From: Bacillus multifaciens
GTDB taxonomy: Bacteria > Bacillota > Bacilli > Bacillales > Bacillaceae_G
Direction of reading: 5' to 3'
Length of the DNA: 64,000 nt
Assembly (NCBI RefSeq): GCF_030756675.1
Contig: NZ_JAVBXD010000009.1
Coordinates: 1-64,000, forward strand
Part shown: positions 4,405 through 52,228 of the stretch, in pieces
How positions within the stretch are numbered: position 1 is the stretch's first letter
Layout: the number at the start of each line of letters is the position of its first letter
Position numbers and translations under genes: made by a program
Notes under the pieces: model-generated
Database searches by the model: none
The model's input: only the letters and a program-made list of their open reading frames with translations
What the model was told of the DNA's origin: nothing

Positions 4405-4414
4405 ATAATTAGGT

Positions 4415-4455: not shown

Positions 4456-4468
4456 TGGCATATAGCAA

Positions 4469-5503: not shown

Positions 5504-5532
5504 AGTTCATCTCTCCATTGTCATTATAGTTT

Positions 5533-35723: not shown

Positions 35724-35735
35724 ATTTTTAATTAT

Positions 35736-35773
35736 AATAGTATTTCACAAATAATATTCTGTGAAATACTATT
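35736..35773. terminator. Perfect 14-bp hairpin between toxin and immunity genes
   Basis: AATAGTATTTCACA (35736-35749) pairs with TGTGAAATACTATT (35760-35773) around a 10-nt loop. It is only weakly followed by T residues, so it may be a leaky terminator, mRNA end-protecting hairpin or processing site rather than a full stop. Confidence 0.55.
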
Positions 35774-35861
35774 ATTCATCTTATGTGAAAAAGTACTTGG
35801 AAAATAAGAATTAATAGTAAAATTCATAGCAAAAATATTTTGTAAAGTAGGTGTTAGGTTT

Positions 35862-36512: not shown

Positions 36513-36616
36513 ATTTTTATAAACACAGGAAAATATAATGTAAATAAATATAAATGTTGGTTTGTCATTTATATTAAATTGTATATAAACGTAAAATTTG
36601 ATGGTGTAGAAGTGAA

Positions 36617-36979
36617 TAGTCATTCAAAGTATTTCCGTTTATTAATGAAGTAATTCAATAGACAAAAGAATATGTGAAGCTTCCTTATGATGAGTGGGAT
36701 TATTTGTTCACCTAATCAAAATGGAAAGATATTTTAGAGTAGCTCAGTTTAGAAAAACGACACATGGTTGTTGTTATAAATACAATTGGTTCAATGAATT
36801 TTTTTAAGCAACAAGTTAATATAGGTTTAGGATATCCAGATGAATAAATTAAAATTAATAATTTTCCTAGTCGCACAGAGGTAATTCAGGTTATAGCAAC
36901 ATTTAAGGATACAGGGAAGTTGAAGGCGCGATATTATGAACTGGATGACTTTGTTAATCATACAGAAAACTTTTATTAA
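36617..36979 (+). pseudogene. Decayed gene with in-frame stops
   Basis: One reading frame gives a protein-like sequence (SFKVFPFINEVIQ, TKEYVKLPYDEWDYLFT, HMVVVINTIGSMNFFKQQ, FKDTGKLKARYYELDDF) interrupted by in-frame TAG or TAA codons at 36617, 36659, about 36713, about 36737 and about 36845, before the final TAA at 36977. It is probably a dead immunity gene or a lost toxin partner. The family is not recognised. Confidence 0.6.
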
Positions 36980-37007
36980 TTTGAATTTAATGAAGGAGTT
37001 TTAAAAA

Positions 37008-37730
37008 ATGGCAGAACCTCAAATTATAATCGGAATACCTGGTCTTTGGAATGATAGAGCGGAATTAGTGCAAAAAGTAGTAAGAAAAAGTGGAGGGTAT
37101 CTTCTAGCAGGTAACATTATACATAATGCCAAGGGAGATATTGGCTTTGAGGTAGATATTTACGAACATGATCCGTCTCTAGCAGAAGCATTTTTATATG
37201 CAGGTGGTGAACGCCTTGGGGAGGATATCCTTGGTGAGATAAGTAACCACATATATACAGTATATGTTATTGCTAAAGTAAGGAATATTCATACTGTAAA
37301 AGAAGTTATTGATGTTGGAATGGGACTCCTTAATGCAGGGGGAACTGCTGTGAAAATTGAAACTACTGGCGTAGCTTATTCTAAAGAAGAATGGAAAGAA
37401 ATTGCAGATAACAAAGAATATTTCCTCATTTATTCGCATTTTGTGACGTTAGTTGGAGATGAGAATAGCTATTATTCATGTGGTATGCAGTCATTTGGCC
37501 TTCCGGATGTTGTAATATCTGCTCATATAGATGTAGAAGAAGCAGCTGATTTATTAAATGACTTTAATTTATATAATTTAGTTGAAATGCCTAAATTAAA
37601 AGATGGAGAGACAATTAGCTTTACGCAAACATCTCCTGTGTATAAGTTGGCTCATTGTAAGGATTATCGTTATGAACGAGATGACCTTTTTTATAATTCT
37701 TGTGGATTGTGGGAATTAAAAAAGGTTTAA
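37008..37730 (+). CDS. DUF4261 family protein, possible immunity protein
   Basis: A 240-residue protein preceded by AAGGAG. Features such as FEVDIYEHDPSLAEAF, HIYTVYVIA, DVGMGLLNAGGTAVKIETTGVAYSKEEW and FVTLVGDENSYYSCGMQSFGLPD fit the DUF4261 family as I recall it. The family often accompanies polymorphic toxins, and this copy sits inside a cassette array; its toxin has been lost or is the decayed frame upstream. Cytosolic, no signal peptide. The role is inferred from context. Confidence 0.65.
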   Translation: MAEPQIIIGIPGLWNDRAELVQKVVRKSGGYLLAGNIIHNAKGDIGFEVDIYEHDPSLAEAFLYAGGERLGEDILGEISNHIYTVYVIAKVRNIHTVKEVIDVGMGLLNAGGTAVKIETTGVAYSKEEWKEIADNKEYFLIYSHFVTLVGDENSYYSCGMQSFGLPDVVISAHIDVEEAADLLNDFNLYNLVEMPKLKDGETISFTQTSPVYKLAHCKDYRYERDDLFYNSCGLWELKKV

Positions 37731-37968
37731 ATATAGTTAAGTTAGTGTGTGTGTGAATATAAGTGTTTAGGAAATAATGAAATTTTTATTTAGGGCTTTA
37801 TTATGAACAGGTAAAAGATGTATTAATATTAAAAAATGGCAAAGAGGAAGGAGTCTAGAATAAGAGTCCTTCCTTTTTAATTTAAAGAAAGTGTCCCCGA
37901 TGAGCGTATTAGCAAGATAAAATAAAAGCATCATAACAAATGGTAGAAACAATAACGTCTGTCTAGTC

Positions 37969-38622
37969 ATGAAAACAGGTGAACAAACGGTATACTATCA
38001 CTACAACCCACGCGGTGACGTCATCGCGATGACAGACGAAAATGGACAAGTCGTAGCAAACTATGAATACGATGCATGGGGCAATGTTTTAAAGAGTGAC
38101 GCAAAAGGTATTGCAGCAGAGAATCCATTTGGATATGCGGGATATATGTATGATAAAGAGATTGGGATGTATTATCTAATTGCTAGATATTACAATCCAA
38201 CTCATGGCGTGTTCTTGTCTGTGGATCCGGATCCGGATGGGCATAAATCTTGGAAACAGAAGTTTAATAGAGTTTGGTATGCAACAAAAGCGGAATTCAA
38301 AGCAGGGAGAAGAGCTGTTTGGAAATCTTACGCGGATAATTTTGGAGCACTTATTAGCACGGTAGGAACAGCATATGTAGGTTATAAATATGGTAAGACT
38401 AAATATCTGAAACAAAATACTCCTGCATTTAATAAAAAATATGTTAATAAATCTGCTAGGATAGCTGGGGTTAAAATGGCATCAAAATCCCTTGAGATTT
38501 TTGGGTTATTACCTGATGCATACACCTTTGTAACTGAGGGGTGGAAAGGTGGTAAAGCAGCATATAAAAGTTATGGTAGAACAGCATATAAAAGCTATGG
38601 GAAAAAGAAAAAAAGAAGGTAG
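37969..38622 (+). CDS. Orphan Rhs-core toxin tip (cassette 2)
   Basis: A 217-residue fragment: the Rhs core from about residue 6 (EQTVYYHYNPRGDVIAMTDE ... YLIARYYNPTHGVFLSVDPD), almost identical in DNA to 34911-35160, then a new basic C-terminus of about 130 residues (DPDGHKSWKQKF ... AYKSYGKKKKRR). It has no export signal, no shell and no good ribosome site, so it is probably a silent cassette that could recombine onto the full gene. Compared with the main gene it lacks about 23 codons between DPDP and DPDG. The tip's family is not recognised. The adjacent membrane gene is the likely immunity partner. Confidence 0.75.
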   Translation: MKTGEQTVYYHYNPRGDVIAMTDENGQVVANYEYDAWGNVLKSDAKGIAAENPFGYAGYMYDKEIGMYYLIARYYNPTHGVFLSVDPDPDGHKSWKQKFNRVWYATKAEFKAGRRAVWKSYADNFGALISTVGTAYVGYKYGKTKYLKQNTPAFNKKYVNKSARIAGVKMASKSLEIFGLLPDAYTFVTEGWKGGKAAYKSYGRTAYKSYGKKKKRR

Positions 38623-38629
38623 ATAAATT

Positions 38630-38869
38630 GTGTTAAAAATTATTATTGGGACATTAGGAGGATTGTGGCTTCTCTATGGTTGTATAAAAGAAAAGTGTTG
38701 GATTTCTGCTGGTATTGCAGCATTACTCGTTATATTAAGTGTTGTTAGTTTATTTACTGAATTTTTAAATGAACTTTCGTTTATGTATCAACTAATTATT
38801 GCTGTTACTTTATCATTGGGTGGAATTGTAGCATATACGTATGAATCAGAACGAAAAGAAAGACGATAA
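38630..38869 (+). CDS. Small membrane protein, candidate immunity protein (cassette 2)
   Basis: A 79-residue protein from a GTG start 7 nt after the orphan toxin's stop codon. Three hydrophobic helices, the motif GCIKEKCWISA and a charged end YTYESERKERR. It is clearly related to the protein at 39123-39419 (NCIKEKCWLSA ... YDYETSKD). A membrane-bound immunity protein suggests the cassette 2 toxin acts at the membrane, or that toxin entry is blocked there. Inference from position and similarity. Confidence 0.6.
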   Translation: MLKIIIGTLGGLWLLYGCIKEKCWISAGIAALLVILSVVSLFTEFLNELSFMYQLIIAVTLSLGGIVAYTYESERKERR

Positions 38870-38882
38870 TTAATTGTTAAAA

Positions 38883-39100
38883 ATAAGAGAAGCCTATGAA
38901 AATTTATTACCAAGTGAAAGAAAGGTACTTCATAGAATTTTGGAAAGGTCGATTAGATGCTTAGAAAAAATCTAAGACAAAATCAAGTGTAAAAGTGGTG
39001 AATCGACTCCGCAGAAAAGCGATATTAACAAATACAAGTAAAAAGGCGACAAAAGCATTGTTACATTACTAGTTAGTATACGACAAAGATAAGGGGTAAA
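38883..39100 (+). pseudogene. Toxin/immunity debris
   Basis: Short protein-like frames without starts: IREAYENLLPSERKVLHRIL... ending at 38975, and KSSVKVVNRLRRKAILTNTS... ending near 39070. The basic second piece resembles the end of a toxin tip. No complete gene. Confidence 0.4.
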
Positions 39101-39122
39101 ACAGGAACAATAGTGTGGGTGA

Positions 39123-39419
39123 ATGGCTATGTTGAATTTTGATTTTATAGATAAAGTATTCTCTGTAATTCAGAAATATCCAGTAGGTATAATTGTAATG
39201 CTTTTCGGACTAGGGTTTATTTTTAATTGTATAAAGGAGAAATGCTGGTTATCTGCATTGGTTATGGGAGTTCAAAGTGGATTACTCATGCTTGGGATGT
39301 TTACAAACATATTAACAAACATTTTAATAAACGTTCCTCTTATAGTTCAATATATTGGTCTGATAATCTTTACAATCTTATGTTGTGTTGTATATGACTA
39401 CGAAACATCTAAAGATTAA
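39123..39419 (+). CDS. Small membrane protein, paralogue of 38630-38869
   Basis: 98 residues, three hydrophobic helices, motif NCIKEKCWLSALVMG and a C-terminal YDYETSKD. It shares the KEKCW block and layout with the immunity candidate 250 bp upstream, so the two are probably variants of one immunity family acquired with different toxin tips. Its own toxin is now debris upstream. Confidence 0.6.
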   Translation: MAMLNFDFIDKVFSVIQKYPVGIIVMLFGLGFIFNCIKEKCWLSALVMGVQSGLLMLGMFTNILTNILINVPLIVQYIGLIIFTILCCVVYDYETSKD

Positions 39420-39495
39420 GTGTTATCGGCCACGGAAACGTCGTCATTAAGTTACTGAAAACGAGATACCCTAAAAACGAAAGAATGGGAGTATC

Positions 39496-40275
39496 TTGTT
39501 TTTATATCTACCTCAAATCGGCATCCGCCTTGCGATGAAATCCCAAGGTCAAACGGTATACTACCATTACAACCCACGCGGTGACGTCATCGCGATAACA
39601 AATGAAAATGGACAAGTCGTAGCAAACTATGAATACGATGCATGGGGCAATGTCTTAAAGAGTCATGCAAAAGGTATCGCAGCAGAGAATCCATTTGGAT
39701 ATGCGGGATATATGTATGATAAAGATATTGGGATGTATTATCTAATTGCAAGATATTACAATCCAACTCATGGTGTGTTCTTGTCTGTCAATCCGGATCC
39801 GGGTGATGAAGATGATCCTTTGACGCAGAATGGATATACGTATGTAGATAATAATCCAGTAATGCTGATAGATCCAGATGGTAATATACTGATAGCTCCA
39901 CTTTTAATAATGGGGGCGTGGATAGTTGCTCCTCATGTAGGGCGTTATGTTGGTAAACAATTGGCTAAACGTGCTGTAAAGAAAACATTGCAGTATAAAG
40001 GTAAAATTGGAACACCGAAGAGAAAGGTAGTATTTGATCAGAGGAAGATACCAACAACAGGTGCAAGAAAAAATAGTATAACGTATCACTTTAAAAAGGG
40101 GAAACTATATCAAAAACGATATTATGATCACAAGGGGAGAGTTAGAAAAGATATAGATTATACTGATCATGCAAATCCTAAGGCCCATTCTGTAGTTCCT
40201 CAAAAACATTATTGGAAATGGAGAACTACGACATACTACGAGGTATCCTTTAAGAAAGAAATGGTGATATTATGA
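39496..40275 (+). CDS. Orphan Rhs-core toxin tip (cassette 3)
   Basis: A 259-residue fragment beginning near GIRLAMKSQGQTVYYHYN and carrying the complete core to IDPDG (DNA nearly identical to 34885-35240), then a new tip of about 125 residues. The tip ends with YHFKKGKLYQKRYYDHKG, KDIDYTDHANPKAHSVVPQ and a Trp/Tyr-rich tail; the KDIDyTDHxNPKxH block resembles a polymorphic-toxin nuclease type I associate with "toxin 24" domains, but this is from memory. It overlaps its immunity gene by 4 nt (ATGA). It starts from a weak TTG and has no export signal. Confidence 0.75.
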   Translation: MFLYLPQIGIRLAMKSQGQTVYYHYNPRGDVIAITNENGQVVANYEYDAWGNVLKSHAKGIAAENPFGYAGYMYDKDIGMYYLIARYYNPTHGVFLSVNPDPGDEDDPLTQNGYTYVDNNPVMLIDPDGNILIAPLLIMGAWIVAPHVGRYVGKQLAKRAVKKTLQYKGKIGTPKRKVVFDQRKIPTTGARKNSITYHFKKGKLYQKRYYDHKGRVRKDIDYTDHANPKAHSVVPQKHYWKWRTTTYYEVSFKKEMVIL

Positions 40276-40742
40276 GATTTTATGTAGCAGATAATACAGG
40301 TTATATAAATGAAATGCTTTCATTTGTATTTGAGGATATGGGTAATTATAATTGGATATTTACAGATATGGTGCCACATGTATTTAAAAATGGTATAGAA
40401 GTGACGGATACTATATTTGAGCGAGAAAAATTTTATATCTTAGGTAAGGAACTCTATAGTTTTTTGAAAGAGTATGAAGTCTTACTTATATTTGGAGTAG
40501 TGATTGCTGTAGAACAGACAGATAGAAATGTTCTTAAAAATATTCCTGACTATCCAGTAATTCAAGATAATGAGCAATATTGGAAAGAAGATTACCATTT
40601 AACAATTCCAGGGTCTGTTATGGAAATTGGTTTTTTTGATACTGCATGTTTGATCTTTGCAAGTGAGAGTGAATACAATATAAAAAAATTTCAAAAACAG
40701 TTCCCAACAGCTATTTTGTACTCGGAGTATTTAGAATTATAG
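40272..40742 (+). CDS. Immunity protein of cassette 3
   Basis: A 156-residue acidic, soluble protein whose ATG overlaps the toxin stop codon (ATGA), a coupling typical of toxin-immunity pairs. No family recognised; it has a mixed alpha/beta appearance (MRFYVADNTGYINEMLSF, VLLIFGVVIAVEQTDRNV). The role rests on position. Confidence 0.65.
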   Translation: MRFYVADNTGYINEMLSFVFEDMGNYNWIFTDMVPHVFKNGIEVTDTIFEREKFYILGKELYSFLKEYEVLLIFGVVIAVEQTDRNVLKNIPDYPVIQDNEQYWKEDYHLTIPGSVMEIGFFDTACLIFASESEYNIKKFQKQFPTAILYSEYLEL

Positions 40743-40817
40743 GATATGCCATTTGAGTCATAAAAAAGGAGGGTTCTGTTGTAAAGTTTCTCAAGAAATA
40801 AAAAGGGATATAAAAGT

Positions 40818-40862
40818 ATGAGGAAATATTATGTAGTAGCTAGTGATTTCCGTAATTCATGA
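40818..40862 (+). pseudogene. 14-codon remnant of an immunity-like gene
   Basis: ATG after AAAGGGATA encodes MRKYYVVASDFRNS and then stops. The start resembles that of the preceding immunity protein (MRFYVADN). It is followed directly by the hairpin and intron remnant, so this is probably a gene cut off by rearrangement. Confidence 0.4.
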
Positions 40863-40864
40863 TA

Positions 40865-40910
40865 CACCGAAAAAGGCGGAGCCTGCTTGAAGACTTCGCC
40901 TTTTTCGGTG
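40865..40910. terminator. 14-bp hairpin at the edge of the intron remnant
   Basis: CACCGAAAAAGGCG (40865-40878) pairs perfectly with CGCCTTTTTCGGTG (40897-40910). It is terminator-like and overlaps the first bases of the group II intron fragment. Confidence 0.7.
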
Positions 40911-41010
40911 CACCCAGCATGCGTCTATTCTCTAGGGTTTAAGTCCCAAATCGTGAAGGCAGTAGTAATGATTGGATTAAGACAAGGGTGTCCGTGACGA
41001 CGTGGAATCG
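40908..41010 (+). mobile_element. Group II intron 5' fragment
   Basis: Begins GTGCACCCAGCATGCG, then CTCTAGGGTTTAAGTCCC, GGCAGTAGTAATGATTGG and AAGGGTGTCCGTGACGACGT ending GGAATC. These are domain I landmarks of bacterial group II introns. The rest of the intron and its reverse transcriptase are missing; it breaks off into toxin debris at 41011. Its position at a terminator hairpin fits class C introns, which insert after such hairpins. Confidence 0.6.
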
Positions 41011-41142
41011 GATGACAATAGAGGTCTATTTGCTGCAAAAAGAGCAGGTGTGAAAGTAAGGGTTCAATGGGCTACACCTAAGGAAATACAAAGAGAACTT
41101 AGAAACGGAAAACTAAGTACTAAAATAAAGGGACATCTATAA
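41011..41142 (+). pseudogene. C-terminal remnant of a toxin tip
   Basis: An open frame without a start: DDNRGLFAAKRAGVKVRVQW ... ELRNGKLSTKIKGHL then TAA. The basic composition and position before an immunity-like gene indicate the tail of a former Rhs tip, now truncated by the intron fragment. A further basic scrap (RSGKIITYWNNDWKKKKR) follows to about 41217. Confidence 0.5.
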
Positions 41143-41250
41143 AAAGGAGGCTATTATATTAGAAGTGGTAAAATAATTACTTACTGGAATAACGATTGGA
41201 AAAAGAAGAAACGTTAGCAACTTCATTAATGAATGGATTGTGAGCTTAAT

Positions 41251-41604
41251 ATGTCAAAAATTAATTCAGAATTATTGCAAGAACTAGAGAATGTAAAAAT
41301 ACAGCTAGAGATCCCATATCCTTCAGATGATATAGAACAAATTGCATATGATTATAATCAAGAATGTTTAGCTGAGGATTTTTATAATTATTGTTCAATA
41401 ATTGAAGGAAGTTTGAGTTACGCTCTTGATTTTAAAAAGATTCCAATTTATCAGAGAAAATTCTTATATAAAAACTTTTTTCAAACATATCCCCAATATA
41501 CTTTTTTAGTTAGAGAAGGGCAAAAATATTTAGAATTTCATCAGCAGCTAATAATTTATGAATATACTCGCAAGTTATTAATTGCAGTTATTGAAACGTA
41601 TTAA
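41251..41604 (+). CDS. Probable immunity protein (117 aa)
   Basis: A small, acidic, helical protein (MSKINSELLQELENVKIQLE ... YEYTRKLLIAVIETY). An ATG at 41233 is in frame, but the only ribosome-site-like sequence (GTGAG) precedes 41251. It lies between two dead toxin tips and is likely the orphaned partner of the remnant at 41011. No family recognised. Confidence 0.5.
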   Translation: MSKINSELLQELENVKIQLEIPYPSDDIEQIAYDYNQECLAEDFYNYCSIIEGSLSYALDFKKIPIYQRKFLYKNFFQTYPQYTFLVREGQKYLEFHQQLIIYEYTRKLLIAVIETY

Positions 41605-41606
41605 AT

Positions 41607-41911
41607 TTATTTCGGAAGTTTAAGTTAGCTAAAGGGGCACTGAAAAGTGGAAGAACCTTAACTAAAATCTCTAAAAAGGCCTATCAAGTGCATAAACAGA
41701 TAAAGCAAAATAATGGACGCGGAAGAGGACAAGTTTTACCAAGAAATACAACTTATCGAGAATATGACATAAACCCTTACGTTAAAGGTGAAAATAGGGG
41801 GCACAAAGATTAGTTATAGGAAAAAACGGAAAAGCATACTATACAAAGGCTCACTATAAAACTTTTGTTAAAATGCCTCGAAAGAAAAGGGTGATTAGAT
41901 TATGGAGATAG
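41607..41911 (+). pseudogene. Barnase-type ribonuclease toxin tip, frameshifted
   Basis: Frame 1 gives a basic linker and VLPRNTTYREYDINPYVKGE to a stop at 41811. A shift of one base at the G-run 41797-41801 restores RLVIGKNGKAYYTKAHYKTF and then runs to TAG at 41909. This is the microbial ribonuclease (barnase/N1) core, and the equivalents of the barnase catalytic Glu73 (YREYDIN), Arg87 (QRLVIG) and His102 (AHYKTF) are all present. One missing base thus inactivates an otherwise intact catalytic domain. It has no Rhs core or start of its own. The next gene is its barstar-like inhibitor. Confidence 0.8.
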
Positions 41912-42399
41912 AAAAGAAAATCAAAACATTAAATGAACCATTTTTTCATTTAGTAATTACAGATGAAATTTATGAATTAACAAAAATAAATTTTAAAGAT
42001 ACGTTTAAATATATATTAATAGACGGAAAAAAGTGTATGGATGTAGAAAGTTTGTTTAATGAATTTTCTACTAAAATGGAATTTCCAGATTACTTTGGTA
42101 GGAACTGGAGTGCTTTTGATGAATGTATCAATGATTTAAGTTGGCTTAGTGCTCAAGGATACGTAATATTTATTAGCGATGTAGATCAGGTGCTTGTTAA
42201 AGAGGATAAAGATTTTAGGATATTAATGGACATTTTATACGATTGTTGTGAAGAATGGTCACAAGGTAGAGAGTACGGCAAATTTATTACGATACCGTGT
42301 CCATTCCACATCATACTTCATTCTAATATGAAAATAGGAAGCCCTACTATATCACGACTAAAACAAATAGGAATCGAAGAAATTGATATTATAAAATGA
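41902..42399 (+). CDS. Barstar-family ribonuclease inhibitor
   Basis: A 165-residue protein with the barstar core (KYILIDGKKCMDVESLFNEF, MEFPDYFGRNWSAFDECIND, SWLSAQGYVIFISDVDQVL): helix plus the YFGRNWSAFDE segment that covers the ribonuclease active site in barstar. It overlaps the end of the barnase-type frame by 10 nt, the usual toxin-antitoxin arrangement. The gene is intact although the toxin is broken, so it may still protect against sibling strains carrying the active toxin. Confidence 0.85.
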   Translation: MEIEKKIKTLNEPFFHLVITDEIYELTKINFKDTFKYILIDGKKCMDVESLFNEFSTKMEFPDYFGRNWSAFDECINDLSWLSAQGYVIFISDVDQVLVKEDKDFRILMDILYDCCEEWSQGREYGKFITIPCPFHIILHSNMKIGSPTISRLKQIGIEEIDIIK

Positions 42400-43874: not shown

Positions 43875-43900
43875 CCCACTTAAAGCTGCGTTTAAGTGGG
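43875..43900. terminator. Hairpin overlapping the regulator stop codon
   Basis: CCCACTTAA pairs with TTAAGTGGG around AGCTGCG. The stop codon of the minus-strand regulator (43892-43894) is inside the right arm. Confidence 0.6.
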
Positions 43901-45160
43901 GGGGAGTTGACTCAATATTTTCAGATATTTTGCTGACATTTTATAAGCGCGATTATCATAAAAATAGTTTCCTAGTTCAGTAGCAAGTTCACGAACTAAA
44001 GGGTATTGTTTTTTTTCTAGGCCCATTTCAATAGCTGTTTGCATATTTTTCTCGTATCCATAATCATCTCCTCTTAGTTTGGATATCTTCCCCTTCAATC
44101 CGTATAGTTGAACATGAGCGAAAGGTACATCAGCAATTGATAAAAAATGAAATGCCTCATCCATTAATTTATTAACAGTTTTCCAATCTTTAAGTTCTAT
44201 ATGAATCTCTATTAAGCCTCGGAACATGTATATCTTTTGACTCTTTTGGTAGAGAAACTCACTTAGTTGCAAGCTTTCTTCATAGTACTTAATAGCATTC
44301 GTATAGTCTTTCAAGCCGTGATAAATTTTTCCGTAATAATACGTAATTATAGGTAAATACATAGAATTATAATTTTTTTTCACTCCAAGTTCTGCCTGCT
44401 GTAAGGTTTCGAGAGCTTTGTCATATAATACATCTGATTCATACAGAAGTACAAGCATTAAAAGAGCATTTATTACTTCATGCTCCATATTAAATTTTTT
44501 GTACAATCTGTAGGCTTTTTTAGCATACAACCGGCCAATACTTTTATCTTTATAAAGCTCTTTATTTACATGACATAGATTATAATATATATGGGCGTGT
44601 TGTTCAGTTTCTTCTAGGCCAAGTAAACCCTCTACCTTCACATAAATTTCATGTGCAGCCATATAGTCTTGTTTATTATAAAAATAATGACCTCGAGCCA
44701 TGAAATAATATATAAAATCTTCGGAATATTGAGGATCTACTTGATTTGGGATGACTTGCGAAGCTTGATCTACAATTGGTGCTACATGTAGTAAATTATC
44801 ATTTCGAGAATGATAGTATATTAAAACACCATAAGCCTTTAATAATAAAAGATTCGAGTCTGTTTCACGAACATACAGTTCTAAAGAAGCTAAGTCTTTG
44901 TTGCTTATAAGCACATCATTTTTATACTTATTACATATTTCAAGAAGCTTAGGCTCTATATCCTCATAATCTGCATCGACAAGAAAATTATAATCAACAT
45001 CTAGTTTTTTAGCGACCTTTTCCAAAAAAGAAGCTGAAGGTTTAATTTGTCCATTTTCAATCCTACTTAAATAAGTTATCGAACAGATACCGGATACTAG
45101 TTCTCCTTGTGTGAATTTTTTATGTATACGTATTTGTCGAATACGTTCACCAATGTTCAT
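43892..45160 (-). CDS. XRE/TPR regulator, RNPP-like (NprR/PlcR/Rap-type architecture)
   Basis: About 422 residues. An N-terminal helix-turn-helix (MNIGERIRQIRIHKKFTQGE ... ITYLSRIENGQIKPS, about 1-65) is followed by roughly 350 residues of TPR-type helical repeats (KALETLQQAELGVKK, NAIKYYEESLQLSEFLYQKS). This is the architecture of peptide-responsive regulators such as PlcR and NprR. ATG 45160 is preceded by AAAGGAATG; the frame extends further upstream without support. No pheromone gene was found directly downstream. It diverges from the two genes leading to the RiPP cluster, so control of that cluster is plausible but unproven. Confidence 0.8.
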   Translation of the reverse strand: MNIGERIRQIRIHKKFTQGELVSGICSITYLSRIENGQIKPSASFLEKVAKKLDVDYNFLVDADYEDIEPKLLEICNKYKNDVLISNKDLASLELYVRETDSNLLLLKAYGVLIYYHSRNDNLLHVAPIVDQASQVIPNQVDPQYSEDFIYYFMARGHYFYNKQDYMAAHEIYVKVEGLLGLEETEQHAHIYYNLCHVNKELYKDKSIGRLYAKKAYRLYKKFNMEHEVINALLMLVLLYESDVLYDKALETLQQAELGVKKNYNSMYLPIITYYYGKIYHGLKDYTNAIKYYEESLQLSEFLYQKSQKIYMFRGLIEIHIELKDWKTVNKLMDEAFHFLSIADVPFAHVQLYGLKGKISKLRGDDYGYEKNMQTAIEMGLEKKQYPLVRELATELGNYFYDNRAYKMSAKYLKILSQLPPT

Positions 45161-45434: not shown

Positions 45435-45620
45435 GTGGAAAACGAAAAACCTATTGAAAAATTTTTAAGTACAGAAATTCGACCAGTAAGGAGAGAGAGT
45501 CGCTTTGATGCTATAGAAAAAAGTACTATAAATATGATAGACAATATTATGTTTACAAACATTCATTACGTCAAAATACATAGCAAGCCAAAGAGTAAAA
45601 TATCAGGAGGAGAGAAATGA
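45435..45620 (+). CDS. Hypothetical 61-aa protein
   Basis: GTG start shortly after GAGGAAGAAG. A charged, soluble peptide (STEIRPVRRESRFDAIEKST ... HYVKIHSKPKSKISGGEK) with no membrane segment. Its end contains the ribosome site of the next gene, so the two are coupled. It diverges from the XRE/TPR regulator. No family recognised; being about twice the size of the RiPP precursors and unrelated to them, it is not a fourth precursor. Confidence 0.5.
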   Translation: MENEKPIEKFLSTEIRPVRRESRFDAIEKSTINMIDNIMFTNIHYVKIHSKPKSKISGGEK

Positions 45621-45623
45621 ATA

Positions 45624-46292
45624 ATGAGAAAATATAAACTAAATATAAACAGGCATGACTTATGGAAAGGGTGTATCTTAAAATCTATTGCACATGCGAT
45701 TAATGTTGCTCATTATCCAGACTTTTCATACGAAAGTTCTTGGGATGGGTTTAATTATAATATTCAAGATGGAGATGGAGCCCGTGGAACAGTAACTTTC
45801 CACCCAGAGTACTGTATTGGGGCATTTCAAGATTTAAGTAGTGAGAGAAGTGAATTTGTAAGAGATGCGGTAAGTTACTTTCAAGGAACATCCGATAGAA
45901 TGATAGAAATAGCTAAAAGTGAAACGCTTCAATATTTGTTAGTAGATGTAGATGATGAGATGCTACCTTTAATTACGACAGCTTTTTGGATAGAAGATCA
46001 AAACGCTTATTCAATGGATTTATTTGAAGAATTACAAGAACAAGGTGGTTTTTTATTAGAGATTCAGATGCTTGATACTGCATCTGCAATGGAAGCTTTA
46101 GAAGAAGAATATGAGATGTCTAACGAACAATTACAGCTTTTGAAATTAGTATATGAAAAAAGAATTCAAAGTCCTGAGGGAGAAATTAAACTCTCAAAAG
46201 ATGAGGTAGCATTGATTGGAACGAGTGATATAGAGGGACTTAAAGAAAGTAAAACATCTTTTGAAGAAATGAATATTACTTGGGAATTTTAA
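45624..46292 (+). CDS. Hypothetical 222-aa protein upstream of the RiPP cluster
   Basis: ATG 10 nt after GGAGGAG. Soluble, strongly acidic protein: an N-terminal aromatic/Gly part (SYESSWDGFNYNIQDGDGAR, FHPEYCIGAFQDLSSE) and a C-terminal helical, Glu-rich part (MEALEEEYEMSNEQLQLLKL). I do not recognise a family. A hairpin terminator follows. It could be a regulator partner, a RiPP accessory protein or unrelated; transcription in the same direction as the RiPP genes, 590 bp upstream, is the only link. Confidence 0.55.
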   Translation: MRKYKLNINRHDLWKGCILKSIAHAINVAHYPDFSYESSWDGFNYNIQDGDGARGTVTFHPEYCIGAFQDLSSERSEFVRDAVSYFQGTSDRMIEIAKSETLQYLLVDVDDEMLPLITTAFWIEDQNAYSMDLFEELQEQGGFLLEIQMLDTASAMEALEEEYEMSNEQLQLLKLVYEKRIQSPEGEIKLSKDEVALIGTSDIEGLKESKTSFEEMNITWEF

Positions 46293-46335
46293 GGGATTTA
46301 TTGTTAGTGTGTTGAAAAATGTAAGTTATGAGAAG

Positions 46336-46366
46336 GGAGTCCTAAATTATATGGACTCTCTTTAAT
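46336..46366 (+). terminator. Hairpin terminator
   Basis: GGAGTCC pairs with GGACTCTC around an AT loop, followed by TTTAATT. It separates the 222-aa gene from the RiPP cluster, so the latter needs its own promoter. Confidence 0.6.
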
Positions 46367-46881
46367 TATGTTGAAAACTTATTGTTAAAACAATTTACAC
46401 AAAAAAAGTTCTTTAAATCTACTGAAACGGCATTATTTTGTTTAGTACCATCGTTCTTATGAAGTGGTTTTTAAATTTATTTTGTGCTTCGTAACAAACG
46501 TACATTTTCGTTATATATAGAATAGCTATTTAAGTGCCAAAATTATTTGCTTCTCTATTTGGTAGTTTTATTCGAAAAAGTCGGAATAATCTAAATATTA
46601 TCAAAAATGGATATCAAATTTTGATAAATATTAACAGTTTGTCGACGGTAAAGTGATTCTTTTAGAAGAATTTAATGTTAGGACACAATTTGGACAAACT
46701 TTAATGAGCATTTTTTTATGGTAAGTAGATTGTTAAAAAGAGCGTTAAATCAAAGTTTAATTAGATTAATAAAATATTTGAAACTAATTTGTTATTTAAC
46801 TGAAAATATTTTATAAAACAAAACTTACATTGATTAATTTTACATAATTGGTTTATTATGGATATGAAAGGAGGGGGAGAA
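46367..46881 (+). promoter_or_regulatory. Long AT-rich control region of the RiPP cluster
   Basis: About 515 bp without a credible gene, very AT-rich, leading to the first precursor. It includes an imperfect palindrome at 46592-46633 (TAAATATTATCAAAA / TTTTGATAAATATTA). I could not fix a single -35/-10 pair with confidence. Confidence 0.45.
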
Positions 46882-46983
46882 ATGAGTCGAAATGAATTTT
46901 TATCATTAGAAGAGCTTTTAACTAGATCTTTAGTGGACACATTAAGACGTTGTGGGAATCGTAGAACAAAGCGCACAAAATAA
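46882..46983 (+). CDS. RiPP precursor peptide 1 (33 aa)
   Basis: ATG 7-8 nt after GGAGGGGGAG. Leader-like N-terminal two thirds (NEFLSLEELLTRSLVDTL), amphipathic and acidic, then a strongly basic 13-residue C-terminus with the only cysteine (RRCGNRRTKRTK). Copies 2 and 3 follow at 148 and 147 bp. The next operon genes encode a radical SAM maturase and an ABC transporter, so this is read as a substrate. Copy 1 differs from the others by Arg22 and Asn26 in the core. Candidate modification: a Cys24-derived thioether or another radical SAM crosslink. No signal peptide. Confidence 0.85.
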   Translation: MSRNEFLSLEELLTRSLVDTLRRCGNRRTKRTK

Positions 46984-47029
46984 GGAGCAATAATTCTATA
47001 TGTTTCTTATGAGAAAGGAGGGGGGAGAA

Positions 47030-47131
47030 ATGAGTCGAAATGAATTTTTATCATTAGAAGAGCTTTTAACTAGATCTTTAGTGGACACATTAAAGCGTTG
47101 CGGAACTCGTAGAACAAAACGCACAAAATAA
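47030..47131 (+). CDS. RiPP precursor peptide 2 (33 aa)
   Basis: Second tandem copy, with ribosome site AAAGGAGGGGGGAG. The leader is identical to copy 1; the core is KRCGTRRTKRTK. Flanking intergenic DNA (AATTCTATATGTTTCTTATG) is also duplicated, so the whole ~148-bp unit, ribosome site included, was amplified. Lys22 and Thr26 are shared with copy 3. Confidence 0.85.
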   Translation: MSRNEFLSLEELLTRSLVDTLKRCGTRRTKRTK

Positions 47132-47176
47132 GGAGTAATAATTCTATATGTTTTTTATGAGAAAGGAGAGATAGGA

Positions 47177-47278
47177 ATGAGTCAAAATGAATTTTTATCA
47201 TTAGAAGAGCTTTTAACTAGATCTTTAGTGGACACATTAAAGCGTTGTGGAACTCGTAGAGCAAAACGCACAAAATAA
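47177..47278 (+). CDS. RiPP precursor peptide 3 (33 aa)
   Basis: Third copy, with ribosome site AAAGGAGAG. It differs from the others by Gln3 in the leader and Ala29 in the core (KRCGTRRAKRTK). Cys24, the following Gly and the surrounding basic residues are invariant in all three. A hairpin follows at 47304-47330, before the maturase gene. Confidence 0.85.
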   Translation: MSQNEFLSLEELLTRSLVDTLKRCGTRRAKRTK

Positions 47279-47303
47279 GAATAAGATTATTGAAATACTT
47301 AAT

Positions 47304-47330
47304 GAGGGCTAGACAATCTGTCGTGCCCTC
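47304..47330 (+). terminator. Hairpin between precursors and maturase
   Basis: GAGGGC pairs with GCCCTC, with a small inner GAC/GTC stem. The T-rich stretch is weak and delayed (TTACTACTCACTAATTTTTT). It is likely a partial terminator that lowers expression of maturase and exporter relative to the precursors. Confidence 0.6.
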
Positions 47331-47393
47331 TTACTACTCACTAATTTTTTAAATGTATTCTTACATAAACTAAAAATCTATGGGGGGATAGAA

Positions 47394-48686
47394 ATGTATC
47401 CATACGTATTGAACGATGTTACAATTCATTATTTTGGAGAAAAAGGAATAGCTGTAAATCATAAAGATGGTAATCATTACTTTTTAAATAAAAATGAATT
47501 AATCTTATTAGAGAAATGTAATGGAAATAATTCTATTGATGATATCGTTCAAGAAACAGCTAAGGAAATTCAACTTTTTGATATTTTAAGAGTTCATAAT
47601 GCCATTTCTAAATTTATTAATTTTCAAATGCAGAGGAATTTAATAGGTTTAAATGAAATTTCGTACTATATACCCATACATTTTACTGGGAAAAAGGGTT
47701 ATGAAATTCCAATGGAAATTTTATTAGAGATAACAAACCGATGTAATCTTAAATGTATTCATTGTTATAAAGAAGCTGGATATGATAAAAAAGATGATAT
47801 AGACATAAAGAAATTATTAACAAAATTAGAGTATTTTAAGGGGCATATACATTCACTTCAAATCAGTGGTGGAGAACCAATGAGTCATCGTTACTTTTTT
47901 GATATTTTAGACTATTGTACAAGGAATTTTTCAACTTCTCTTACCACAACGGCAACAATGATTAATAAACACAATGCCCACAGATTTATAGATGTGGATA
48001 ATGTACAAGTTTCTGTTTATGCAGCTACACCAGAAGAACATGATAAAATCACTTTAGTACCTGGTTCTTTTCATAGAACTATGAGAGGAATTCAAGAACT
48101 TGTGCATAAAGAAAATAACGTTACCATCTCTTCTATTATAACAATGGAAAATTATATGGTTCTGGAGGATATCATTCGATTGGCAGTAGACATGGGGGTA
48201 CAAGCTATAAAATTTGGAGAGTTTAGTAGATATGGTAGAGGGGAGAATTTAGGAGAAGAGTGGGAATTAGCTAAGGATATAGATACCTATGTAACGAATC
48301 GGATTTCAGAATTAGCTACAAAGTACAAAGATAGAATTAATGTTGAGAATTATTATGATGATTTACTCGAAATGAAATTTGATTATAATCATAAAGGTTT
48401 TTCATGTGGGGCAGGTAATTTATCATGGACAATTAGTGAATTTGGTAATATTAAACCTTGTGTTTTTCTTCCTGAAAATAGATTTAAAACGGGAAATATA
48501 TTTGAAGATGATATGGATGTACTATTTAAGAAAAATCATATTCTGAATTTACATACAAACATTGTAGAGTGGGAGCATAGCTTAAATGACCAAAATATGA
48601 GTTCTAAACAAATATGCCCAGTTATGAAAAACTATGAAGAGTTTTTTGATAATCAATTGTGGAAAACGGATGGGGTTAAACAATGA
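47394..48686 (+). CDS. Radical SAM peptide maturase with PqqD-like region
   Basis: A 430-residue enzyme. Residues about 1-90 resemble a PqqD/RRE-type leader-binding region (NHYFLNKNELILLEKCNGNN). The radical SAM core follows, with CNLKCIHC (Cys117, 121, 124) binding the 4Fe-4S cluster and the GGEP motif at 159-162. The C-terminal auxiliary region has Cys338, Cys356 and Cys408, fewer than a full SPASM set, so it may bind one auxiliary cluster. Such enzymes install thioethers, carbon-carbon or other crosslinks in RiPPs. It starts after GGGGGGATAG, and its 3' end overlaps the ABC gene by 4 nt. Substrates are presumably the three upstream peptides. Confidence 0.85.
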   Translation: MYPYVLNDVTIHYFGEKGIAVNHKDGNHYFLNKNELILLEKCNGNNSIDDIVQETAKEIQLFDILRVHNAISKFINFQMQRNLIGLNEISYYIPIHFTGKKGYEIPMEILLEITNRCNLKCIHCYKEAGYDKKDDIDIKKLLTKLEYFKGHIHSLQISGGEPMSHRYFFDILDYCTRNFSTSLTTTATMINKHNAHRFIDVDNVQVSVYAATPEEHDKITLVPGSFHRTMRGIQELVHKENNVTISSIITMENYMVLEDIIRLAVDMGVQAIKFGEFSRYGRGENLGEEWELAKDIDTYVTNRISELATKYKDRINVENYYDDLLEMKFDYNHKGFSCGAGNLSWTISEFGNIKPCVFLPENRFKTGNIFEDDMDVLFKKNHILNLHTNIVEWEHSLNDQNMSSKQICPVMKNYEEFFDNQLWKTDGVKQ

Positions 48687-49603
48687 TAAGTGTAGAAATA
48701 AGTAATGTAAGTAAAGTATATAAAACAAAGCATGAAAGCGTACAAGCTGTAAATAATGTGAGTTTTTCATTACGAGAAGGAACGATTACATCATTATTAG
48801 GACCTAATGGATCTGGAAAAACAACTTTAATTAAGATGATTTGTGGGTTAATTATTCCGGATCAAGGAGAAATTCAGATTAAGGGCATGTCTGTTACGAA
48901 AGAAACAAAGAAAGCTTGTGCAGCGGTAGGTTGTATTTTAGAAGGAGAACGTAATATTTATTATTACTTAACGGTTTACGATAATCTTTACTATTTTGGT
49001 ACTTTAAATTTTATTCCTAAAAAAGAGCTGAAATTAAGAATTGATTCTGTTCTCCAACTATTAGATTTAGAAGATAAAAAATATGAACTTGCATCCAATC
49101 TATCACGAGGAATGCAACAAAAACTTGCGTTAGGAATAACTTTAATAAAGGATGCTGAAATTTTGCTTTTGGATGAACCGACATTAGGGCTAGATGTTAC
49201 ATCTACTAATCATCTTTTAGATACGTTGAAGAAATTAGCTAGTGAAGGGAAAACTATTTTATTGACTACACATCAATTGGAGCTTTCTCAACGGATTAGT
49301 GATGATATTATTCTATTTAACAAAGGGAAAATTTTTCAACATACATCAAAAGAATCGTTACTTAAAGAAGCAAATGCCGGTGCTACGTGGGTGAAACTTT
49401 CTATCAATGTTACAGATGCGAAAGAGATAAATATGATTTTTTCTAACGTTCCATACGAACATGTAGACGAAAATGAGTGGGCAATTCCAGTCGAACATTT
49501 ACCTATGGTTCTGAAACAACTAGATATACACGGTTTAGAATTATTAGACTTAAAGAAAATTGAAAAAAATCTAGAAGATGTTTTTTTAGAATGGGTGAAA
49601 TAA
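48683..49603 (+). CDS. ABC transporter ATP-binding protein (RiPP exporter/immunity)
   Basis: A 306-residue ATPase: Walker A GPNGSGKT, signature LSRGMQQK, Walker B ILLLDEPTLGLD and H-loop TTHQLEL, plus a C-terminal extension of about 80 residues typical of ABC-2 exporters. It overlaps the maturase gene (ATGA). No C39 peptidase domain is present, so leader removal is not done by this transporter. It probably pairs with the next gene to export the modified peptide or protect the producer. Confidence 0.85.
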   Translation: MISVEISNVSKVYKTKHESVQAVNNVSFSLREGTITSLLGPNGSGKTTLIKMICGLIIPDQGEIQIKGMSVTKETKKACAAVGCILEGERNIYYYLTVYDNLYYFGTLNFIPKKELKLRIDSVLQLLDLEDKKYELASNLSRGMQQKLALGITLIKDAEILLLDEPTLGLDVTSTNHLLDTLKKLASEGKTILLTTHQLELSQRISDDIILFNKGKIFQHTSKESLLKEANAGATWVKLSINVTDAKEINMIFSNVPYEHVDENEWAIPVEHLPMVLKQLDIHGLELLDLKKIEKNLEDVFLEWVK

Positions 49604-50425
49604 ATGAGACAATTTGTTTATATTTTCCGAGCAGAGTTTTGTAAGTTTAAAGGGGAGTTTAAAAAATATTATATAGATTCTTTTGGTGATATTGTTGCAT
49701 ACATTGTTTTATTTTGCGGGATATTTTTTACGGTCTTTAAGGATTATGAATGGTCTAATGAAGCTTTCTTTCAATTAATTATGGGGCTGTTTGTGTGGTA
49801 CATTGCGATTGGTGCCATCGCTAATTTTACTTTTATCTTACAAGAAGAAATGGAGTTAGGTACTTTAGAACAAATATATTTAACACGCTCGCCGATCATG
49901 AAAATTTTAATCGGAAGGGCATTAGGTTCTTTTATATTTGACTTGTTAAGCGGGATTATTTTATCCCTTGGTACCGGTATTGCTATTTCAGTATTTACAA
50001 AACAATATTCCTTCTCTGTATTCACTCTTAATATTTCGTGGATATCTCTTGTGATTGTTATGATACTTACAATGATAGGGATTTATGGATTTGCTTTTAT
50101 ATTGGCGGGCATTTCCTTAGTTTATAAACGAATTAGTGCTATTGTAGGTGTATTAAATAATATCTTTTTATTCTTTACAGGTATAACGATAGCATCATCT
50201 TTCCCGCCCCTGTTAGAGGGGATTTCAAAAGTATTGCCGATCACATGGGGGATCATTAATTTAAAGGCGATCATATTGAGTAAGTATTCTTTTCAAGAGT
50301 TAATCACAAACTCGTCATTTACTTTCTTATGTTTAAACTCTTTTTTATACTTATTAGTAGGTATTACAACGTTCAAATATTTAGAGGCATACTGCAGAAG
50401 AAAGGGAACATTGGGGCATTATTAA
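49604..50425 (+). CDS. ABC-2-type permease (RiPP exporter)
   Basis: A 273-residue membrane protein with six hydrophobic helices (about 25-48, 55-80, 105-135, 143-170, 177-200 and 245-265) and the ABC-2 pattern FILQEEMELGTLEQIYLTRS between helices 2 and 3. ATG directly follows the ATPase stop codon. Partner of the preceding ATPase; last gene of the RiPP operon. Confidence 0.8.
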   Translation: MRQFVYIFRAEFCKFKGEFKKYYIDSFGDIVAYIVLFCGIFFTVFKDYEWSNEAFFQLIMGLFVWYIAIGAIANFTFILQEEMELGTLEQIYLTRSPIMKILIGRALGSFIFDLLSGIILSLGTGIAISVFTKQYSFSVFTLNISWISLVIVMILTMIGIYGFAFILAGISLVYKRISAIVGVLNNIFLFFTGITIASSFPPLLEGISKVLPITWGIINLKAIILSKYSFQELITNSSFTFLCLNSFLYLLVGITTFKYLEAYCRRKGTLGHY

Positions 50426-50450
50426 TGCATCAATGTTTCTTTTTTTATTT
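50407..50450 (+). terminator. Terminator of the RiPP operon
   Basis: AACATTG...GCATTA pairs with TTAATGC...CAATGTT, followed by TCTTTTTTTATTT. The permease stop codon is inside the stem. Confidence 0.85.
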
Positions 50451-50488
50451 TAATGCGTACAATTCCAAGGATCATTCAGAAAGAATGT

Positions 50489-50540
50489 AAAAAGGACACC
50501 CCACGCCAAATATTCCACCGCAAGTGTGTCCTTTTACATT
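50489..50540 (-). terminator. Terminator of the neutral protease gene
   Basis: AAAAGGACAC pairs with GTGTCCTTTT across a longer loop; on the minus strand the A-run becomes the U-run. 18 bp after the protease stop codon. Confidence 0.75.
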
Positions 50541-50557
50541 TTTAATCAATGAAACTA

Positions 50558-52228
50558 TTATTTTACGCCTACGTCATTCCAAGCTTTTTCTACAGCTTTA
50601 TATGTTGCACTGTTAACACCGTAGTAATCAGCAGCGGATTGCAATAAAGCAGCACGTGCTTTACTGAAATCACTTGTTGGTGTAAGGTACGTTGTTAAAG
50701 CACGGTAATAGATTTTTTCTGCTTTTTCTTTACCGATAGCATTGATTGTTAAATAAGCAGCTTTATTTGGAATACCGCTATTGATATGTACGCCGCCATT
50801 ATCGCCTTCTTCTGTTGCTGGTAAATATTGATAGTTGTTCATGTGAGCGGGTTGATCATATTTTTCAGGATTTGATAAGCTGCGGAGTGCATCTCCTTTA
50901 ACGCCTGGTGTATATACCGCTTCTCCTATATCCCAATTGGTTGGATCAACAAAATATCCAAATACATCAGAAAAAGATTCATTTAGTGCCCCAGATTGAT
51001 TTACGTATCGAAGATCAGCTGAATATTCAGTCACAGCATGTGTTAATTCATGTGCAACGACATCAAGCGCACCTGATAGCGGTGCAAATTCAACACCATC
51101 GCCATCTCCATAAATCATTTGTTGACCATTCCAGAATGCATTATTGTAGTTTTTTCCATAATTGATTGCAGAGCGAATTGTTGCACCTTGTCCATCAAAA
51201 CTGTTGCGGTTATGAATATTTTTATAATAGTCATATACTTTTCCTGCATAAGCATGAGCATCAACCGCAGGAGCTTGGTCCTTATCTACCCAAGCATTAT
51301 CGTTATCGAATAGAAAGTAATTCTTTGGATTATCTGCTTCGCTATGATTAACCGTAAATGTTTCAATAACGCCACCATTCATCGGTTTTGTTGTGTCTTT
51401 TAAGTAGTATTTTTTATATTGGCTACTGTAAGTTGTATTAAGATCTTTTCGATCACCTAATACTCCATGGCCATAGCCTTTTTGTGGAGTATCTGCATCT
51501 GTAACTGCATTATATGAATCTACAATAGTTCCATCTTCTGCGTTTACATAGATTTGCCAGTTTGCTCCATAAGGTTTAATGAATTGTAATTGTACTTTAT
51601 AAGTTAAGTAATAATTTCCGTCTTTTTCATAAACAACTAAATCTGAAGTTTCATTTGTAGATTTTTCATTTTCTTTCATTTGTTCTAACGGAGCGCCCGT
51701 TGTTTCTGCAAATGTATCTTTTTTCGCTAGATTAATATGCTTCCATGCATTTGAAAGAGCTGTTTCTTTTGAAATCTTTGCTTTTGTATTTTCTTTTAAC
51801 TGCTCTGCCGCAGCTGGATGTACGTCTCCGTTGACTGTTGTTACTTTTCCATCACGATTTGTATGAACAATGAATTTTGCACCGTCAACAGGTACTTTAT
51901 TAATAGATTGATTGTACACATAATGTTTCATGCCTAAATCATCTGACTTTACTTCTTTCAGTGTTAAGTCAGTTTGTGGGTTGATTTTAAATAACTCTTT
52001 ATTTTCTTCAAGGAACGTCTTCACTGCTTTTTCTGATTCTACTTTTTTATCAGATAATTCCCCTGAAAGGAAGGATGGATTTCCTTTCTCATCATTCCAC
52101 GTTTTTTGAACGACTTCCATTTTATCCAAAGCTGCTTGCTGAGATGCTTGTTCTTCTGCAAATGCATTTGAGAACGGGGCACCTAAAACCATTCCGGTTG
52201 CTAGTAATGTAACGACTGATTTCTTCAT
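50558..52228 (-). CDS. Thermolysin-like neutral protease (bacillolysin, M4 family)
   Basis: A 556-residue secreted pre-pro-protease: signal peptide (VVTLLATGMVLGAPFSNAFA), FTP/PepSY pro-region to about 240, then the M4 catalytic domain. The zinc site is HELTHAVTE with the distant Glu in ALNESFSDVFG, and the catalytic His lies in the GGVHINSG region. It degrades extracellular proteins. A perfect PlcR box 86 bp upstream puts it in the PlcR virulence/nutrient regulon of the B. cereus group; the likely counterpart is a PlcR-controlled NprP2-type protease, but I leave the symbol open. It might also trim the exported RiPP leader, which is speculation from convergence. Confidence 0.93.
   Translation of the reverse strand: MKKSVVTLLATGMVLGAPFSNAFAEEQASQQAALDKMEVVQKTWNDEKGNPSFLSGELSDKKVESEKAVKTFLEENKELFKINPQTDLTLKEVKSDDLGMKHYVYNQSINKVPVDGAKFIVHTNRDGKVTTVNGDVHPAAAEQLKENTKAKISKETALSNAWKHINLAKKDTFAETTGAPLEQMKENEKSTNETSDLVVYEKDGNYYLTYKVQLQFIKPYGANWQIYVNAEDGTIVDSYNAVTDADTPQKGYGHGVLGDRKDLNTTYSSQYKKYYLKDTTKPMNGGVIETFTVNHSEADNPKNYFLFDNDNAWVDKDQAPAVDAHAYAGKVYDYYKNIHNRNSFDGQGATIRSAINYGKNYNNAFWNGQQMIYGDGDGVEFAPLSGALDVVAHELTHAVTEYSADLRYVNQSGALNESFSDVFGYFVDPTNWDIGEAVYTPGVKGDALRSLSNPEKYDQPAHMNNYQYLPATEEGDNGGVHINSGIPNKAAYLTINAIGKEKAEKIYYRALTTYLTPTSDFSKARAALLQSAADYYGVNSATYKAVEKAWNDVGVK

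What the first reader, a model, noticed from the sequence alone, without database searches (positions are those of the whole stretch)
46882..50425. Candidate undescribed radical SAM RiPP cluster with three tandem tiny precursors
Seen: three near-identical 33-codon genes each with a strong ribosome site, then a radical SAM protein with a PqqD-like N-terminus, then an overlapping ABC ATPase and permease, then a terminator. Known: this gene set defines radical SAM-modified RiPPs (sactipeptides, ranthipeptides, RaS-RiPPs, epipeptides). I do not recognise the precursor family: an acidic leader (FLSLEELLTRSL) and a tiny, very basic core with a single Cys (RCGxRRxKRTK). Inference: a new cationic peptide, possibly antimicrobial or a signal.
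Basis: partly seen in the sequence, partly recalled or inferred. Interest (0 to 1): 0.92.

Follow-up and report, generated by a model that had tools for sequence, protein, structure and literature searches.

The report
Bacillus cousin of streptococcal TQQ peptides
A Bacillus-like chromosome carries three tiny peptide genes, a radical enzyme and an ABC transporter that are distant relatives of a streptococcal family of ether-crosslinked peptides, so this is a new branch of a known kind of peptide rather than a wholly new one.

Summary
"Undescribed" is only partly right. A profile made from four precursors of other genomes, none from the window, ranks the three window peptides 1-3 of 863 window ORFs (E 5e-7 to 4e-6; next 0.82). 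Three of those four pass NCBI's curated TQQ RaS-RiPP model; the window peptides do not (13-18 bits, cut-off 50). The rSAM falls in one clade with enzymes of such TQQ clusters (99/100 support), apart from AlbA-type enzymes. Best reading: a Bacillus branch of the TQQ (rotapeptide/threoglucin) family, with TKR in place of TQQ, three tandem precursors, another transporter type and no adjacent Rgg. By analogy the enzyme would close a small ether ring between Thr29 and the alpha-carbon of Lys30 in copies 1 and 2. Copy 3 has Ala29 and cannot, and the single Cys is conserved in 9 of 9 cores, so the exact chemistry is open. New variant of a known kind. The host is inferred; no genome is held for the window.

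The parts
46882..46983 (+). precursor 1, MSRNEFLSLEELLTRSLVDTLRRCGNRRTKRTK
   Evidence: core CGNRRTKRTK
47030..47131 (+). precursor 2, MSRNEFLSLEELLTRSLVDTLKRCGTRRTKRTK
   Evidence: best window match to the TQQ-type profile, E 4.8e-7
47177..47278 (+). precursor 3, MSQNEFLSLEELLTRSLVDTLKRCGTRRAKRTK; Ala at the position of the TQQ threonine
46873..47315 (+). three 148-nt direct repeats holding ribosome site, precursor and spacer
   Evidence: spacing 148, 147; 95% and 77% identity to the first
47300..47333 (+). hairpin between precursor 3 and rSAM; candidate attenuator or processing stem (inferred)
   Evidence: -19.9 kcal/mol for 47276-47352, z -4.0, 1 of 200 shuffles as good; not listed by the terminator scan
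47394..48686 (+). radical SAM maturase, TqqB-clade; C117, C121, C124, C338, C356 and C408 invariant in the five full-length family members
48683..49603 (+). ABC ATPase of DrrA type
   Evidence: TIGR01188 204 bits (cut-off 312); PF00005 110.6 bits
49604..50425 (+). ABC-2-type permease
   Evidence: ABC2_membrane_3 E 0.0018 and CcmB E 0.0015, both below cut-off; 56% identical over 137 aa to a permease piece beside the G636 remnant
50405..50446 (+). hairpin and U run, probable terminator
   Evidence: -15.2 kcal/mol, z -6.0, 0 of 200 shuffles as good; not listed by the consensus scan

Best explanation
The unit is a radical SAM RiPP operon of the TQQ (rotapeptide/threoglucin) kind, on a separate Bacillus-type branch. 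Shown: three TQQ-like precursors, a TqqB-clade rSAM enzyme and an ABC ATPase/permease in one operon-like block. Inferred: the enzyme recognises the leader (Leu9 and Leu13 conserved) through its N-terminal domain, cleaves SAM, takes a hydrogen from the alpha-carbon of the residue after Thr29 and joins it to the Thr oxygen, giving a six-membered ether ring (Thr29-Lys30 in copies 1 and 2, a mass loss of 2 Da). A host protease then cuts the leader, and the ABC pair exports the short, very basic peptide or protects the producer. Likely role: a growth-slowing or signal peptide acting on near relatives, as reported for threoglucins. The stem between precursor 3 and the rSAM gene would let precursors be made in excess.
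For: A profile from 4 outside precursors (G1016, G1134, G1162, G855) ranks the 3 window peptides 1-3 of 863 ORFs. 3 of those 4 pass NF050041 at 88.8, 88.8 and 59.4 bits against cut-off 50. Core C1, G2, T9 and K10 in 9 of 9 cores from 6 genomes or records (window included); T6 in 8 of 9. rSAM clade of 6 rows with support 99/100 among 30 rows. Order precursor-rSAM-ABC also in Vagococcus, G1016, G855 and G1134. The five full-length members lack the seven-Cys C-terminal pattern seen in 9 of 9 AlbA-type enzymes and share three invariant C-terminal Cys. [quoted passage not shown]
Against: The window peptides (13.3, 18.0, 14.1 bits), G855 (12.4) and Vagococcus (22.7) are below the NF050041 cut-off of 50. 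Gln is replaced by Lys, and Thr29 by Ala in copy 3. rSAM identity to the four other full-length members is only 29-32%. The transporter is of another type than in 4 of 4 of those clusters. No Rgg beside it. No experiment.
Confidence: 0.72

Rival explanations
1. The Cys, not the Thr, is the crosslinked residue: an alpha-thioether (sactionine or thiomorpholine-like ring) from Cys24 to a neighbour, so the branch makes a sactipeptide-like product.
For: Cys-Gly is invariant in 9 of 9 cores while the TQQ-position Thr is Ala in copy 3. The nearest solved structure by profile is SkfB, E 8.6e-29. Enteropeptins show that small thiomorpholine rings exist among RaS-RiPPs (PMC13361665).
Against: The same Cys is present in the precursors that pass the TQQ model, for whose family an ether, not a thioether, is reported. 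The window rSAM groups with their enzymes, not with AlbA-type ones.
Confidence: 0.2
2. The ring forms at another Thr of the core, the invariant Thr32-Lys33 or Thr26-Arg27, so that copy 3 is also modified.
For: T9-K10 of the core is invariant in 9 of 9 cores, T6 in 8 of 9.
Against: The family is named for TQQ and reported to be crosslinked between Thr and the adjacent Gln, which aligns with core positions 6-7. Position 26 is Asn in copy 1.
Confidence: 0.15
3. The rSAM does a different reaction (epimerisation or another crosslink) and the three peptides act as cationic peptides or signals; kinship to TQQ is only in ancestry.
For: 29-32% enzyme identity, Gln to Lys change, copy 3 without Thr.
Against: The core, not only the leader, is conserved across 6 genomes or records.
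Confidence: 0.12
4. The locus is decaying and inactive.
For: Two relatives are broken: G636 (rSAM piece fused to an ATPase piece) and G1162 (rSAM match with 8 stops inside).
Against: All six window genes are open with ribosome sites; the changes between the three copies keep Cys24, Gly25, Thr32 and Lys33.
Confidence: 0.05

Closest known systems
TQQ RaS-RiPP family (TqqA/TqqB; rotapeptides, threoglucins), NCBIfam NF050041
   Same: precursor length 35-37 against 33 aa; core CGT[KR]RT[QH]QTK against CG[TN]RR[TA]KRTK; rSAM in one clade (99/100); order precursor-rSAM-ABC
   Different: TKR or AKR in place of TQQ; core ends at the C-terminus; three tandem precursors; DrrA-type ATPase plus separate permease in place of a fused ABC exporter; no Rgg next to it; below the NF050041 cut-off
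Vagococcus fluvialis plasmid p12B2_p3 cluster (L001)
   Same: core CGTKYTKNTK; rSAM 34% identical; ABC gene follows
   Different: one 59-aa precursor gene with two internal cores; fused ABC exporter; on a 6.7-kb plasmid
G636:C39 remnant (unnamed Bacilli-type genome, L135)
   Same: rSAM piece 59% identical over 137 columns; permease piece 56% identical; same gene order and transporter type as the window
   Different: broken; no precursor found in that genome (0 matches, 44 of 44 candidates scored)
Subtilosin-type AlbA / SkfB enzymes
   Same: rSAM with an N-terminal domain; AlbA model 102 bits; SkfB 6efn nearest solved structure
   Different: AlbA-type rows form a separate clade (SkfB was not in the tree); seven C-terminal Cys in 9 of 9 AlbA-type rows against three invariant ones here; unrelated precursors

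Membership tests
TQQ RaS-RiPP (rotapeptide/threoglucin) | precursor passes NF050041 (50 bits) | tested here: not met
   13.3, 18.0, 14.1 bits
TQQ RaS-RiPP (rotapeptide/threoglucin) | literal Thr-Gln-Gln in the core | tested here: not met
   TKR, TKR, AKR in the three window copies
TQQ-like superfamily (CGxxx[TA]xxTK core, TqqB clade; grouping made here) | homologous precursor | tested here: met
   top 3 of 863 ORFs, E 5e-7 to 4e-6, with a profile without window sequences
TQQ-like superfamily (CGxxx[TA]xxTK core, TqqB clade; grouping made here) | rSAM enzyme in one clade with enzymes of NF050041-positive clusters | tested here: met
   99/100 support, 6 of 30 rows
TQQ-like superfamily (CGxxx[TA]xxTK core, TqqB clade; grouping made here) | Thr-O to C-alpha ether in the product | not testable with these tools
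   needs mass spectrometry; copy 3 lacks the Thr
RaS-RiPP in the streptococcal sense | adjacent Rgg (and SHP) | tested here: not met
   no Rgg domain in the proteins next to the unit that were scanned; an HTH/TPR protein lies 1.7 kb upstream on the other strand. Rgg is present in G1134; none was seen by eye in the stretches read of G1016 and G855; L001 has a 136-aa HTH regulator. SHP was not looked for
Sactipeptide (AlbA type) | rSAM in the AlbA clade with seven-Cys SPASM | tested here: not met
   Pfam SPASM 15.4 bits, cut-off 21.5
Ranthipeptide | PapB-type enzyme; several Cys in the core (recalled) | tested here: not met
   PapB model 65.7 of 340 bits; one Cys per precursor

The most novel reading that the evidence does not exclude
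The Bacillus branch has moved the ring: its enzyme makes a Thr-Lys (not Thr-Gln) ether, or uses the invariant Cys, and the three tandem copies give a set of products in which copy 3, naturally without the ring Thr, is an unringed partner or antagonist of the ringed signal.
Probability: 0.25. Interest if true: 0.65.

Novelty: new variant of a known kind. Interest (0 to 1): 0.45.

Why it matters
It would take the TQQ ether-peptide kind out of the lactic acid bacteria into a Bacillus-type chromosome, with a second transporter type and no Rgg, and give a natural substrate series (TQQ, THQ, TKN, TKR, AKR) for asking what TqqB-like enzymes need at the ring position. The natural Ala copy makes the question of which residue is crosslinked directly testable.

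Tried and rejected
Led nowhere: DNA search of 46700-50500 in plasmids, no match; precursor copy 2 in plasmids, no match; Vagococcus precursor in plasmids, only itself; rSAM in phages, 5 weak hits of 23-27% identity; rSAM in viral contigs, none by single protein and 15 weak ones by profile (none has the motif); rSAM in genome contigs, none. Rfam at 45500-51000: nothing. Promoter scan: 24 sites against 24.8 in shuffles, so no promoter is claimed. tRNAs in the window: none.

Rejected: subtilosin/AlbA membership; ranthipeptide (one Cys, PapB model far below cut-off); mycofactocin, the top NCBIfam hit of the rSAM at 105 of 265 bits, because the three peptides hit no mycofactocin precursor model. 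The streptococcal CGx subfamily (named in PMC13361665) was considered because of the CG; I saw no CGx sequence in any passage that I read, so kinship to it is untested.

Limits: no whole genome is held for the window. The host is inferred from the nearest M4 protease matches, 58-60% identical in Bacillus sp. NTK071, Alkalihalobacillus and Anoxybacillus. The best match of the 21815-23038 protein (EcsB by recall) in 199 genomes of the order of G001 is 50% identical, so close kin of the window are absent from that sample and the spread of the unit in its own group is untested. The genome search scored only the first few candidates per genome (mostly 4 or 5) in the large sets. tblastn in plasmids listed 30 of 134 records. 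Structure prediction never started. The primary TQQ papers are not held.
Full report
What is there. Three 102-nt genes at 46882-46983, 47030-47131 and 47177-47278 encode 33-aa peptides that differ from each other at 5, 6 and 3 codons pairwise. They sit in 148-nt direct repeats that include the ribosome site and spacer. A 115-nt gap follows with a stable stem (47300-47333; z -4.0 for 47276-47352), then a 430-aa radical SAM gene (47394-48686), an ABC ATPase overlapping it by 4 nt (48683-49603), an abutting permease (49604-50425) and a stem with a U run (z -6.0). The consensus scanner listed neither stem. G+C of the block is 30.8% against 35.6% for the window; 9% of 303 windows of that length are as low, so it is not unusual enough to claim recent import. 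Pfam finds Radical_SAM (59.3 bits) and a sub-threshold SPASM (15.4 of 21.5) in the enzyme and nothing in the peptides. NCBIfam gives only a weak hit of all three peptides to the TQQ model (13.3, 18.0, 14.1 bits; cut-off 50).

Relatives. tblastn in plasmids gave one clear relative among 134 records (30 listed), a 6.7-kb Vagococcus fluvialis plasmid (rSAM 34% identical, E 2e-40, next best listed E 2e-17). In front of its rSAM lies a 59-aa gene with two internal cores CGTKYTKNTK, and behind it a fused ABC exporter. The last set gave two strong members, G1016 (277 bits) and G855 (239 bits), against 110 bits for the next. Their precursors end in SGCGTKRTQQTKGNLA and RNCGTKRTKNTKLISF. A search of 197 genomes of the genus of G1016 (4 with a hit at 1e-30) added G1134, with an Rgg gene upstream and core CGTKRTQQTK, and G1162, with core CGTRRTHQTK beside a broken rSAM. 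The fourth hit, G1260, has a subtilosin-like precursor. That these genomes are Lactobacillales, and the genus Streptococcus, is my inference. Further sets gave no new member: 42 genomes of the order of G636 (2 with a hit: G636 itself and G676, the latter without a TQQ-like precursor in its 1.5-kb flanks); 2 of the genus of G855 (only G855); 348 of the phylum of G1016 (11 with a hit at 1e-30; G1016 677 bits, the others at most 142; small Cys-holding ORFs near five of them, L173-L177, were read and L178-L183 scanned by regular expression, none with the motif). In an earlier sample of 397 genomes of the order of G001, searched with the window rSAM alone, the best hit had 112 bits and the top three fall in the AlbA clade.

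Family test. The precursors of G1016, G1134 and G1162 pass the curated TQQ model (88.8, 88.8 and 59.4 bits); those of G855 (12.4), Vagococcus (22.7) and the window do not. A profile from the four precursors G1016, G1134, G1162 and G855 ranks the three window peptides first of 863 window ORFs of at least 20 aa (E 4.8e-7, 2.5e-6 and 3.7e-6; fourth place 0.82). Over the nine cores of six genomes or records, C1, G2, T9 and K10 are invariant; T3 is Asn once and T6 Ala once, both in the window. A regular expression taken from these cores hit no other small ORF in 184 sources (183 loci and the window, some overlapping), 1.65 Mb; being fitted to them it shows specificity only. In a tree of 30 rSAM proteins the window enzyme, the G636 piece, Vagococcus, G855, G1016 and G1134 form one clade (99/100); within it the window pairs with G636 (98/96) and the four others pair together (100/98). 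The G636 piece fills only 29% of the columns, some outside rows have very long branches, and the letter make-up of two clade members (G855, Vagococcus) departs from the rest. Nine AlbA-type enzymes form their own clade (100/99) and carry the seven-Cys tail; the five full-length family members share only three invariant C-terminal Cys (338, 356, 408 in window numbering), with some further ones that are not shared. The nearest solved structures by profile are SkfB (8.6e-29), 5v1q and 5wgg; the last two are by recall SuiB and CteB.

How it probably works. PMC13361665 (sections 13 and 14 read, other passages seen; [quoted passage not shown] Aligned with TQQ, the window would give Thr29-Lys30 in copies 1 and 2. 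A Thr oxygen bound to the next alpha-carbon closes a six-membered ring (my deduction). Lys in place of Gln is plausible because the bond is at the alpha-carbon, and Lys or His stands there in other members too (G855, Vagococcus, G1162). Copy 3 has Ala29 and cannot form this ring. So either copy 3 is unmodified or the ring lies elsewhere; the invariant Cys keeps a thioether possible. The ABC pair is of a type used for export or self-protection (recalled); which is open. No peptidase is encoded in the block, so leader removal would fall to a host protease (inferred).

Differences from the relatives: an ATPase with a separate permease (as in the G636 remnant, whose permease piece is 56% identical over 137 aa) in place of a fused ABC exporter, which 4 of 4 other clusters have (Vagococcus, G1016, G855, G1134: PF00664 with PF00005); three tandem genes; and no Rgg beside the block. 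A 422-aa HTH/TPR protein lies 1.7 kb upstream on the other strand (43892-45160; domains, where the stretch given began two codons before its ATG) with two ORFs of 61 and 222 aa between; a regulatory link is not shown.

Novelty. I found no paper on TQQ-type peptides in Bacillus in searches, of which I saw listings and, for four papers (PMC13361665, PMC9062424, PMC10221674, PMC9055067), passages or sections; the primary TQQ papers and a RaS-RiPP review are not held, so this is no proof of absence from print. I file the find as a new variant of a known kind.

Noticed in passing
window 29058-42399: A 2221-aa ORF followed by two shorter ORFs with RHS repeats (37969-38622, 39496-40275), a YxiJ-like gene (41233) and a Barstar-family gene (41902); looks like a polymorphic toxin locus with spare tips and immunity genes (the large ORF itself was not scanned).
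   Followed up: partly
window 43892-45160, minus strand: 422-aa HTH/TPR regulator, NprR-like by recall; no pheromone gene was recognised beside it by eye; lies upstream of the RiPP unit on the other strand.
   Followed up: partly
window 50558-52228, minus strand: M4 neutral protease gene, convergent with the RiPP unit; the nearest genome contigs matches are only 58-60% identical, yet 81.5% identical DNA over 1.6 kb is annotated on a record labelled Klebsiella grimontii plasmid, CP079755.1; possibly contamination of that record.
   Followed up: no
L135 (G636:C39) 4401-6070, minus strand: Decayed relative of the unit: rSAM piece fused in frame to the end of an ABC ATPase, followed by permease pieces.
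   Followed up: yes
L161 (G988) 1406-4556 and L165 (G1260): Subtilosin-type clusters in which two genes, peptidase-like (AlbE/AlbF-like by recall), follow the rSAM (311 and 285 aa in L161; 306 aa and one cut by the locus end in L165); G1260 also has an Rgg-like gene in front.
   Followed up: no
window 653-1537, plus strand: A second radical SAM/SPASM gene, 294 aa, far from the RiPP unit.
   Followed up: no
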